Below, piece by piece: positions 15,234 through 17,233 of a stretch of DNA of 27,844 bases. The notes under the pieces are model-generated. The model was not told the DNA's origin. It ran no database searches and saw only the letters and a program-made list of their open reading frames with translations. Source of the DNA: a virus; IMG/VR virus record IMGVR_UViG_3300042731_001865, positions 1 through 27,844 of that record; one strand, written 5' to 3'. A program made the position numbers and the translations under genes. How positions within the stretch are numbered: position 1 is the first letter of the stretch; every line of letters starts with the position of its first letter.

Positions 15234-15844
15234 AGGTAAATGTTGTTAATCCACCCGTTACAGGGTGGTTGGAAGTTGATCTTACAAAAGACGATATAGA
15301 TCATCTGCAATCGTGTATTGACGCTGCGAACATTAATAAGAGAACAGCAACGCATACTCTCGCTGGGCATATAGAGAGTAGTCTGTTCTTAGAAGATATT
15401 GACAATCAGTTCATGAGGAATGTATTACTTCCTTGTGCTACTAAATTCGCCCACTCTTTTCCTGGATCTTTTACGAAAGTTGACTGTGATGTTGACCGTA
15501 ATAAGTTGCATCTACGGTCTCTCTGGGTAAATTATCAGAACCAGCATGAGTTCAATCCTATGCACTCTCATACTGGTGTATTCTCCTTTGTCGTCTGGAT
15601 GAAAATACCGACAAAGAGTGAAGAGCAGCACAGTTTATTCGACATGGAAGGGTGTACAGCATCAGACTTCCACTTTACATATGTCGATACCACTGGTAAA
15701 ATAAAGAATCACTTTGTTCCTATGGATCCTGAGAAAGAAGGGAAGATGTTGTTCTTCTCCTCTCAGTTTAATCATGGGGTATATCCGTTCTACAACTGCG
15801 AAGAACAAAGAATCTCCGTCTCTGGAAACCTATTTTATGGATAA
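15230..15844 (+). CDS. 2OG-Fe(II) oxygenase-like protein
   Basis: This 204-residue protein has a double-stranded beta-helix pattern: NPMHSHTGVFSFVVWMKIP near residue 107 holds the first iron ligand(s), and FSSQFNHGVYPFYN followed by EQRISVSGN near 185 holds the distal His and the arginine that binds 2-oxoglutarate. This is the layout of cyanophage oxygenases where the first motif reads HxH rather than HxD. Members hydroxylate proteins, nucleic acids or small molecules; the phage substrate is unknown. It overlaps the next oxygenase gene by 8 bases. Confidence 0.75.
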   Translation: MKVNVVNPPVTGWLEVDLTKDDIDHLQSCIDAANINKRTATHTLAGHIESSLFLEDIDNQFMRNVLLPCATKFAHSFPGSFTKVDCDVDRNKLHLRSLWVNYQNQHEFNPMHSHTGVFSFVVWMKIPTKSEEQHSLFDMEGCTASDFHFTYVDTTGKIKNHFVPMDPEKEGKMLFFSSQFNHGVYPFYNCEEQRISVSGNLFYG

Positions 15845-16397
15845 CGCTAACTACAGTAATGAAAAACCATATTATATCTTTTCTCTAAGTGACGATGCAC
15901 TTGATAAGATTGAAGAGTATTACAATACCCTAGATGAAGATGCATGGGTTCCTATGCATCAAAAGTATGGAGATAATGAAAACTTCAGGGTATGTGACAT
16001 CCATGCTGTCGTAGCAAAATCATATCCTGCCATGATTGCTACCGACTGCTTTAATTTTATCAATGATAAAAAATATGAGTTTGATATCGATCTGTTCGAG
16101 TATCAGATGATGAGGTATGATGTCGGAGGTAACTTTGGATGGCACTGTGACTATGGTGTATCCCCTCAAGAGAATTACTGGAGAAAGTTATCCCTCACTA
16201 TCCAACTTAGTGAACCAGATGAGTATGAAGGTGGTGAACTAATTCTGGTAGACTATTTCAATCAGTGGCAACAGATGCCTAAAGAGAGAGGTGCTGCTGT
16301 TATTTTTGATGCTCGTTGTCCTCATAAAGTAAATCCAGTTCTAGCTGGTGAACGGAAGGCGATCGTGGGCTGGGCGAATGGTCCAAAGTTGCGATAG
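15837..16397 (+). CDS. 2OG-Fe(II) oxygenase, PKHD-type
   Basis: This 186-residue protein starts MDNANYSNEKPYYIFSL. The frame is open from 15714, but the ATG at 15837 (overlapping the previous stop by 8 bases) gives the normal domain length. The iron triad is H103-x-D105 (WHCDYG) and H163 (CPHKVNPV), and R173 (GERKAIVGW) binds 2-oxoglutarate at the usual +10 spacing. It is therefore predicted active, hydroxylating an unknown target. Prolyl/peptidyl hydroxylases of this P4Hc type are frequent in T4-like cyanophages. Its 3' end overlaps the antisense frameshifted gene. Confidence 0.88.
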   Translation: MDNANYSNEKPYYIFSLSDDALDKIEEYYNTLDEDAWVPMHQKYGDNENFRVCDIHAVVAKSYPAMIATDCFNFINDKKYEFDIDLFEYQMMRYDVGGNFGWHCDYGVSPQENYWRKLSLTIQLSEPDEYEGGELILVDYFNQWQQMPKERGAAVIFDARCPHKVNPVLAGERKAIVGWANGPKLR

Positions 16398-16577
16398 CAT
16401 AGCGAGGGTTAGTTTTTGCCTCGTAACTTAGCATCACAGACATTTCATCCACACACTTACACCATTTCTTTCTCGCCTCTGGCGCACCTAATGCTTTTTT
16501 TCAAACAACCTATGCCATTCATGCCAGAGTCTATTGCACTCGGCATTTTTTATGTTTAGATGTTCTTCTCGGTACAT
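16300..16577 (-). CDS. Small gene requiring a -1 shift at A AAA AAG
   Basis: The ATG at 16577 overlaps the gp53 stop (TAATG), the same coupling used between the other minus-strand genes. The zero frame encodes 29 residues (MYREEHLNIKNAECNRLWHE...FEKKH) and stops at 16488. Just before the stop, an in-phase A AAA AAG (16500-16494) allows a -1 shift into a frame that stays open to 16300 and reads ALGAPEARKKWCKCVDEM and onward, which looks like genuine coding. The shifted product would be 92 residues. Either this is a programmed frameshift or a one-base change in the A run has broken the gene. The last 98 bases are antisense to the oxygenase gene, and that part may not be meaningful. No family is recognised. 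Confidence 0.6.
16494..16500 (-). other. Candidate -1 slippery heptamer A AAA AAG
   Basis: On the minus strand the codons read gaA AAA AAG CAT TAG, so the heptamer is in phase, as in E. coli dnaX. AGG lies about 8 bases upstream, and a CGCC-AGA-GGCG mini-hairpin lies 8-9 bases downstream. These are the stimulatory elements expected for bacterial -1 frameshifting, although the hairpin is small. Confidence 0.5.
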
Positions 16578-17233
16578 TATAGACCTTTAGTATCCTGATT
16601 ATAAGTTCTCTTAGTGTCTCTGTCGATATAGTCTGAAGATTTACTATATCTGACAGAAGTTTTCAGGTCGGTCATAAACTGGGTAAGGAATTGTCTTCTA
16701 AGAATAGAGATGTTCCTCTTGTTTTCATTATTTCTAGTTTCATCCAGATAGTTCGTAACACCGATTACTGGGTTTAGTGTCAAGTTTTCGTTGTCTGGAT
16801 CTTGGATGGTAAATCCTTGATCTACTACCTTACCAGCAGGCATAATTAGTCTGCCCATACTATCTTTCACTTCTGTCGTCTCATAGAATTTGGTAGCGTT
16901 CAGATCTTGTAAACCATACTTTTCTAGAGCATAATCATACAGTTGTTTATTAGACAATGGCCATTCATCTCTGACATTGGTGATGCCAGCAGTCATCAAG
17001 ACTACCCAGTCGAGTTTTAAGTTACCATATACTGCCTGTGCAACATCTTGAGGTCTATCACCCTCTCGAATCGTATACTTTGTCAGGTATGTTGTCGATG
17101 CAAATGCATCATCTCTCAGTTTTCCTCTCACAAAGAGATTCTTTACCTGCAGATAGTTCTCTACTGCTGGACTATTGTCCAGTGGATTCCTAACGATAAT
17201 GTTAGGTAGTTGTGAAAAATAGTGTCCAGCCAT
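16577..17233 (-). CDS. 53: Baseplate wedge subunit gp53
   Basis: This 218-residue protein starts MAGHYFSQLPNIIV. The central TKYTIREGDRPQDVAQAVYGNLKLDWVVLM is the LysM-like element typical of gp53, followed by the NVRDEWPLS stretch. In T4, gp53 joins the wedges to complete the baseplate around the hub. The length is close to T4 gp53 (196). Its ATG overlaps the gp48 stop by one base, and its own stop overlaps the ATG of the frameshifted gene by one base. Confidence 0.88.
   Translation of the reverse strand: MAGHYFSQLPNIIVRNPLDNSPAVENYLQVKNLFVRGKLRDDAFASTTYLTKYTIREGDRPQDVAQAVYGNLKLDWVVLMTAGITNVRDEWPLSNKQLYDYALEKYGLQDLNATKFYETTEVKDSMGRLIMPAGKVVDQGFTIQDPDNENLTLNPVIGVTNYLDETRNNENKRNISILRRQFLTQFMTDLKTSVRYSKSSDYIDRDTKRTYNQDTKGL

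What the first reader, a model, noticed from the sequence alone, without database searches (positions are those of the whole stretch)
16300..16577. Previously uncalled gene after gp53 with an in-phase A AAA AAG site
The stretch between the oxygenase and gp53 appears empty, but the minus strand has an ATG overlapping the gp53 stop (TAATG). It opens a 29-residue peptide that ends CAT TAG right after gaA AAA AAG. A -1 shift restores a plausible coding frame for 64 more codons. AGG lies upstream and a CGCC/GGCG mini-hairpin downstream. This is dnaX-type geometry. The alternative is a single-base loss in a seven-A run, either in the phage or as a sequencing error.
Basis: partly seen in the sequence, partly recalled or inferred. 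Interest (0 to 1): 0.72.

Follow-up and report, generated by a model that had tools for sequence, protein, structure and literature searches.

The report
Cyanophage gene with conserved ribosomal frameshift
A tiny, mostly overlooked gene of ocean viruses that infect cyanobacteria is split over two reading frames, and about a hundred relatives keep the same 'slippery' sequence at the join, so the virus very probably makes ribosomes slip back one base there to produce the full protein.

Summary
At window 16577-16300 (minus strand) an ATG overlapping the gp53 stop opens 28 codons ending GAA AAA AAG, then CAT TAG; the coding frame continues at -1. Homologues in cultured Synechococcus phages and IMG/VR contigs split identically: 119 of 119 unique split genes (72 of 72 found without using the motif) carry A AAA AAG in phase at codons 26-28, although the A run is 6 or 7 long and codon 26 varies. 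A zero-frame stop two codons later is strongly over-represented (59 of 72; 22.5 expected). Synonymous sites are frozen around the site and at an upstream GGAGGGAG. A hairpin starts 8 bases downstream. A second branch of the family encodes the same protein in one frame with other linkers. The product is a phage-only helical hairpin of about 60 conserved residues; the shift falls at the turn, so unshifted translation gives helix 1 alone. In most other phages the gene ends about 20 bases before petE (plastocyanin) or lies between zwf and the terminase gene. Shift efficiency and protein function are untested.

The parts
16488..16577 (-). zero-frame ORF, 29 codons (MYREEHLNIKNAECNRLWHEWHRLFEKKH, stop TAG 16490-16488); start ATG overlaps the gp53 stop (TAATG)
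   Evidence: homologous to the N-terminal half of one-frame homologues
16494..16500 (-). slippery heptamer A AAA AAG, in phase with the zero frame (codons 26-28)
   Evidence: 119/119 split homologues, 72/72 in the motif-independent sample
16300..16494 (-). -1 frame after the shift: ALGAPEARKKWCKCVDEMSVMLSYEAKTNPRY plus a non-conserved tail, stop TAA 16302-16300; conserved part ends at about 16399
   Evidence: PHROG 8483 E = 7e-22 over residues 24-61 of the joined protein
16501..16503 (-). TGA in the -1 frame immediately before AAA AAA GCA; the next -1 frame start codon is GTG at 16452, inside the conserved domain, so independent initiation cannot make the whole C-terminal half here
16480..16486 (-). 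5' arm of the downstream hairpin (TGCGCCA), beginning 7 bases after the heptamer (8 for the six-pair core common to relatives)
16458..16464 (-). 3' arm of the downstream hairpin (TGGTGTA)
16509..16511 (-). AGG, possible weak upstream Shine-Dalgarno-like element, 8 bases before the heptamer; the GGAGGGAG of most relatives (17 bases before) is absent in the window
16577..17233 (-). upstream gene, baseplate wedge gp53
15714..16397 (+). convergent 2OG-Fe(II) oxygenase ORF (true start may be further in); its 3' end overlaps the non-conserved tail of the shifted product

Best explanation
The region is one small cyanophage gene decoded by programmed -1 ribosomal frameshifting. Ribosomes start at ATG 16577, reach A AAA AAG with tRNA-Lys on AAA and AAG, and a fraction slip back one base, helped by a hairpin 7-8 bases downstream (and in most relatives perhaps by GGAGGGAG upstream). 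Non-shifted ribosomes stop two codons later and release a 29-residue peptide, helix 1 alone; shifted ribosomes make the full helical-hairpin protein (about 60 conserved residues plus a variable tail). Shown by comparison: the conserved slip site in phase, both frames under coding selection, the excess of zero-frame stops, folding beyond codon-use expectation. Inferred: that slippage occurs on the ribosome, its efficiency, the stimulatory roles of hairpin and upstream element, and that both products matter. Function of the protein (speculative): a phage-only Cys/His helical hairpin, usually encoded just before plastocyanin (petE), possibly serving the phage's reprogramming of photosynthetic electron flow or carbon metabolism.
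For: Slip site: 119/119 unique split genes, 72/72 in the motif-independent sample (51 at under 90% nucleotide identity). Codon 26 ends in A in 72/72 against 37 expected, across seven different codons; the Lys pair is always AAA AAG while Lys elsewhere in the gene is AAA 158 / AAG 128. Zero-frame stop at codon 30: 59/72 against 22.5 expected (clusters 44/51 against 15.5), kept through -1 frame changes Leu/Ile/Val and Ala/Asp. Synonymous codon identity 1.00 at codons 27-28 and 0.94 at 29, against about 0.4-0.5 expected. The most variable codon position switches frame at the site. One-frame homologues align over both halves. Hairpin: mean folding energy -12.4 against -10.2 and -11.2 kcal/mol in synonymous shuffles (z -6.5 and -5.0), not in windows further down; base 94 purine/pyrimidine covaries with base 116 T/G (p 1e-6 for all, 0.017 for clusters). 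The window and others have TGA in the -1 frame directly before the site.
Against: No translation, proteomic or ribosome-profiling data. 58 of 72 relatives have an ATG or GTG in the -1 frame upstream of or at the site, so some C-terminal half could come from internal starts there. GGAGGGAG lies 17 bases upstream, further than the roughly 10 bases of E. coli dnaX (own knowledge), and is missing in the window. Most hairpin pairs never vary because they also encode Pro and Trp-Cys, so covariation rests mainly on one pair.
Confidence: 0.92

Rival explanations
1. Sequencing error or a one-base deletion: an ordinary one-frame gene is broken in this contig.
For: One-frame homologues exist; homopolymers are error-prone.
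Against: The same break at the same codon in 119 unique sequences from many isolates and metagenomes, with runs of 6 or 7 A; the one-frame genes have different linkers, not an eight-A run; both halves remain under coding selection.
Confidence: 0.01
2. Transcriptional slippage: RNA polymerase adds an A in the run, so that a minority of mRNAs carry one continuous frame.
For: An A run lies at the junction; an extra A would give the same protein.
Against: The run is only 6 A in 46/72 and 7 in 26/72, below the n > 7 quoted for transcriptional slippage at A runs (PMC3711429); selection keeps the phase and the final AAG codon rather than a longer run; the zero-frame stop and downstream hairpin suit ribosomal shifting.
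Confidence: 0.04
3. Two overlapping genes: the -1 half is a separate protein started internally (ATG/GTG in the -1 frame), by its own Shine-Dalgarno (GGAGGGAG) or by coupling to the zero-frame stop. This is how S-RSM4, S-CAM3, Syn19 and others are annotated.
For: 58/72 have an upstream ATG or GTG in the -1 frame, 48 of them with a Shine-Dalgarno-like tetramer within 16 bases; GGAGGGAG is conserved at synonymous sites in the split class.
Against: No usable start in 8/72, including the window, where TGA abuts the site, and only TTG in 6; the possible starts are at different places; one-frame homologues show that the halves form one domain predicted as a helical hairpin; it does not explain the frozen A AAA AAG.
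Confidence: 0.05

Closest known systems
E. coli dnaX (tau/gamma) -1 frameshift
   Same: A AAA AAG heptamer, hairpin a few bases downstream, purine-rich upstream element
   Different: In dnaX the shift gives the short product; here the shift gives the full-length protein and non-shifted ribosomes stop. Unrelated gene; upstream element further away (17 bases) and missing in the window
IS3-family orfA/orfAB frameshifts on A AAA AAG
   Same: Same heptamer and logic: short zero-frame product, longer -1 fusion, downstream structure
   Different: Not a transposase; product of about 75 residues; no mobile-element features seen
Phage tail-assembly chaperone frameshifts (lambda G/GT)
   Same: Phage gene, -1 shift giving an extended protein from the same start
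   Different: Not in a tail-chaperone position in relatives (before petE, or between zwf and the terminase gene), far smaller, different slip sequence from lambda
PHROG 8483 / T4-GC 972 (cyanophage hypothetical proteins)
   Same: The -1 half of this gene is a member
   Different: Those entries hold only the C-terminal half, started at whichever ATG/GTG/TTG is available; the upstream half and the join are missing

Membership tests
programmed -1 ribosomal frameshift genes | in-phase X XXY YYZ heptamer conserved among homologues | tested here: met
   72/72 motif-independent, 119/119 in all
programmed -1 ribosomal frameshift genes | both frames under protein-coding selection, and one-frame relatives that span the join | tested here: met
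   variation by codon phase switches at the site; one-frame homologues span it
programmed -1 ribosomal frameshift genes | downstream structure about 5-9 bases from the site | tested here: met
   hairpin beyond synonymous-shuffle expectation, z -5.0 to -6.5, local to the site; stimulation itself not tested
programmed -1 ribosomal frameshift genes | upstream Shine-Dalgarno-like stimulator about 10-14 bases from the site (optional) | tested here: inconclusive
   GGAGGGAG conserved in the split class (AGG 46/46 of Arg codons; one-frame class 25/42) but 17 bases away and absent in the window
programmed -1 ribosomal frameshift genes | measured trans-frame product | not testable with these tools
   needs mass spectrometry, ribosome profiling or a reporter
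dnaX frameshift element | shift into a near stop giving a shortened product of a DNA polymerase III subunit | tested here: not met
   the shift extends the product; no Pfam family at its cut-off; no Rfam match
phage tail-assembly chaperone G/GT | lies between the major tail protein and tape-measure genes | tested here: not met
   neighbours are petE/PTOX or zwf/nuclease/gp17 in relatives, gp53 and an oxygenase in the window
PHROG 8483 | sequence match to the family profile | tested here: met
   E = 7e-22 for the joined window protein, residues 24-61; the 29-residue zero-frame peptide alone matches nothing

The most novel reading that the evidence does not exclude
A widespread cyanophage control device: the frameshift sets the ratio of a helix-1-only peptide to the full Cys/His helical hairpin, tuning a small protein encoded in the phage photosynthesis cassette (just before plastocyanin), possibly a copper- or redox-linked factor, while sister phages make the same protein without a shift. 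That would give a natural with/without comparison for what frameshifting buys a virus.
Probability: 0.25. Interest if true: 0.78.

Novelty: new member of a known kind. Interest (0 to 1): 0.64.

Why it matters
The best-known frameshifting in tailed phages is in tail-chaperone genes; this appears to be a second, widespread phage family, in a small non-structural gene of marine cyanophages. The product is mis-annotated (half of it, or nothing) in the split-class reference phages examined. Because the same gene occurs in one-frame form in sister phages, often at the same place before petE, it offers a ready comparison for why a virus keeps a frameshift. It also gives a small invariant Cys/His protein to test in phage control of photosynthesis.

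Tried and rejected
Sequencing error, transcriptional slippage and two independent genes: see rivals. Literature: full-text searches and look-ups in the frameshifting review PMC5009743, the A_AAA_AAG survey PMC4066793, the GeneTack survey PMC3711429 and the cyanomyovirus comparison PMC3037559 gave no description of this frameshift; only open-access PMC papers were searched, and supplements were not available. Function by family: no Pfam, PADLOC or PDB sequence match of note. Function by fold: Foldseek against PDB gave nothing with E below 1; VIA-align Z up to 8.4, within what unrelated helical models give; the copper sensor CsoR and a copper storage protein are among these weak hits and are no evidence. 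BFVD gave only family members as clear hits. Tree of 112 sequences (49 columns): split and one-frame forms are intermixed with mostly unresolved forks, so the number and direction of switches cannot be told. The host genome collection gave one hit, in an archaeal MAG, probably a mis-binned phage contig.

Full report
OBSERVATION. The minus strand between gp53 and the convergent oxygenase reads exactly as described: TAATG at the gp53 stop, 28 codons ending GAA AAA AAG, then CAT TAG; the -1 frame runs for 64 further codons to TAA 16302-16300. The window is a whole 27.8-kb IMG/VR virus record. gp53, the tail tube cap and the two oxygenases are confirmed by profiles.

HOMOLOGUES. DNA search of the phage collection at once found the same piece, 75-80% identical, in Synechococcus phages S-M1, QB2, WH25-B, S-H25, S-RSM4 and S-CAM3, in other genome neighbourhoods. 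tblastn with the joined protein found two-piece (two-frame) matches in 39 records and one-piece matches in 17 more cyanophage records. IMG/VR scans and one motif scan brought the total to 216 unique gene sequences: 119 split (C-terminal block exactly 29 bases after the N-terminal block) and nearly all the rest in one frame with other linker lengths.

SLIP SITE. All 119 split genes have A AAA AAG at the same codons, in phase. Excluding everything that came only from the motif scan, it is 72 of 72 (51 clusters below 90% identity; median pairwise identity about 69%). The A run is 6 in 46 and 7 in 26. Codon 26 is CGA, GAA, TTA, CAA, ATA, AGA or CTA, always ending in A, where codon use predicts about half. 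Strong synonymous freezing is seen at codons 26-30 and 19-20, with a few weaker isolated codons elsewhere. The zero-frame stop at codon 30 is kept in 59 of 72 (22.5 expected; z 9.7), through -1 frame codons TTA, CTA, ATA and GTA; the 13 exceptions (TTG) run on for up to about 20 more zero-frame codons. So ending the short product next to the site appears selected, though not obligatory.

STRUCTURE. A six-pair hairpin starts 8 bases after the heptamer (bases 92-97 with 113-118 of the gene; one more pair in the window, 16486-16480 with 16464-16458). Mean folding energy of the 45 bases after the site is lower than in synonymous shuffles (z -6.5 with gene-wide codon use, -5.0 with column-wise codon use); the signal is gone 20 bases further on. 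Most pairs cannot vary because they encode Pro and Trp-Cys, but base 94 (third base of an Ala codon) is nearly always a purine when base 116 is T, and in 7 of 13 cases a pyrimidine when it is G (Fisher p 1e-6 over all, 0.017 over clusters). Members without Pro at 33 fold a longer stem using bases 122-127 instead. Upstream, TGG AGG GAG TGG gives GGAGGGAG, 17 bases from the site, conserved at synonymous level in the split class (AGG 46/46, GAG 52/59) and less so in the one-frame class (25/42, 23/52); its role is open. The window lacks it and has AGG 8 bases from the site.

ALTERNATIVES. Internal starts exist in the -1 frame of 58 of 72 relatives, but in 8, the window among them, no start codon precedes the conserved residues. 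Transcriptional slippage is unlikely with 6-7 A (n > 7 quoted in PMC3711429).

PROTEIN. The joined product matches one-frame homologues over its length. AlphaFold2 on a one-frame member with 51 IMG/VR sequences gives a helical hairpin, helices 5-26 and 32-56, mean pLDDT 87. Residues 26-28, encoded by the slip site, lie at the end of helix 1 and the turn, so the unshifted product is helix 1 alone. Over 212 sequences C14, C42, K10, W21 and W39 are invariant and H6 nearly so (210) (partly favoured by search patterns that contain some of these residues). By hairpin register C14 and C42 should lie opposite each other (inference). The family is phage-only in the collections searched. PHROG 8483 and T4-GC 972 hold only the -1 half.

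CONTEXT. In 45 split and 83 one-frame loci petE (plastocyanin) follows, starting a median of 20 and 24 bases after the gene, with PTOX beyond in many; 57 split loci have zwf upstream, and nuclease (53) or terminase (44) genes downstream. The window is the only copy found next to gp53. A role in phage control of photosynthetic electron flow is a lead from position only.

VERDICT. A real, widely conserved programmed -1 frameshift in a phage gene family for which I found no description in the literature searched; mechanism of a known kind; function unknown. No step had to be referred.

Noticed in passing
L005, L006, L015, L017, L020, L024, L026 and IMG/VR loci: The small gene ends about 20 bases before petE on the same strand in 43 of 45 split and 81 of 83 one-frame loci that have petE downstream, so split and one-frame versions occupy the same cassette.
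   Followed up: partly
L024 1734-2057 (S-SCSM1, NC_070962): The petE-like gene next to the family member is named 'tail tip protein Tal' with a note 'plastocyanin (petE)': an annotation slip in the record.
   Followed up: no
window 16300-16397: The last 32 codons of the shifted frame are antisense to the end of the oxygenase and match no relative: a real tail, or simply the first stop reached by chance.
   Followed up: partly
split genes, residues 33 and 43: Members with His/Gln/Arg/Asp at 33 instead of Pro tend to have Ala (GCT) at 43 and a different, longer stem, as if protein residues change together to keep an RNA hairpin.
   Followed up: partly
L364 (NHGE01000043.1, Euryarchaeota MAG TMED129): The only hit in the genome collection is on a contig binned as archaeal; probably a cyanophage contig in the wrong bin.
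   Followed up: no
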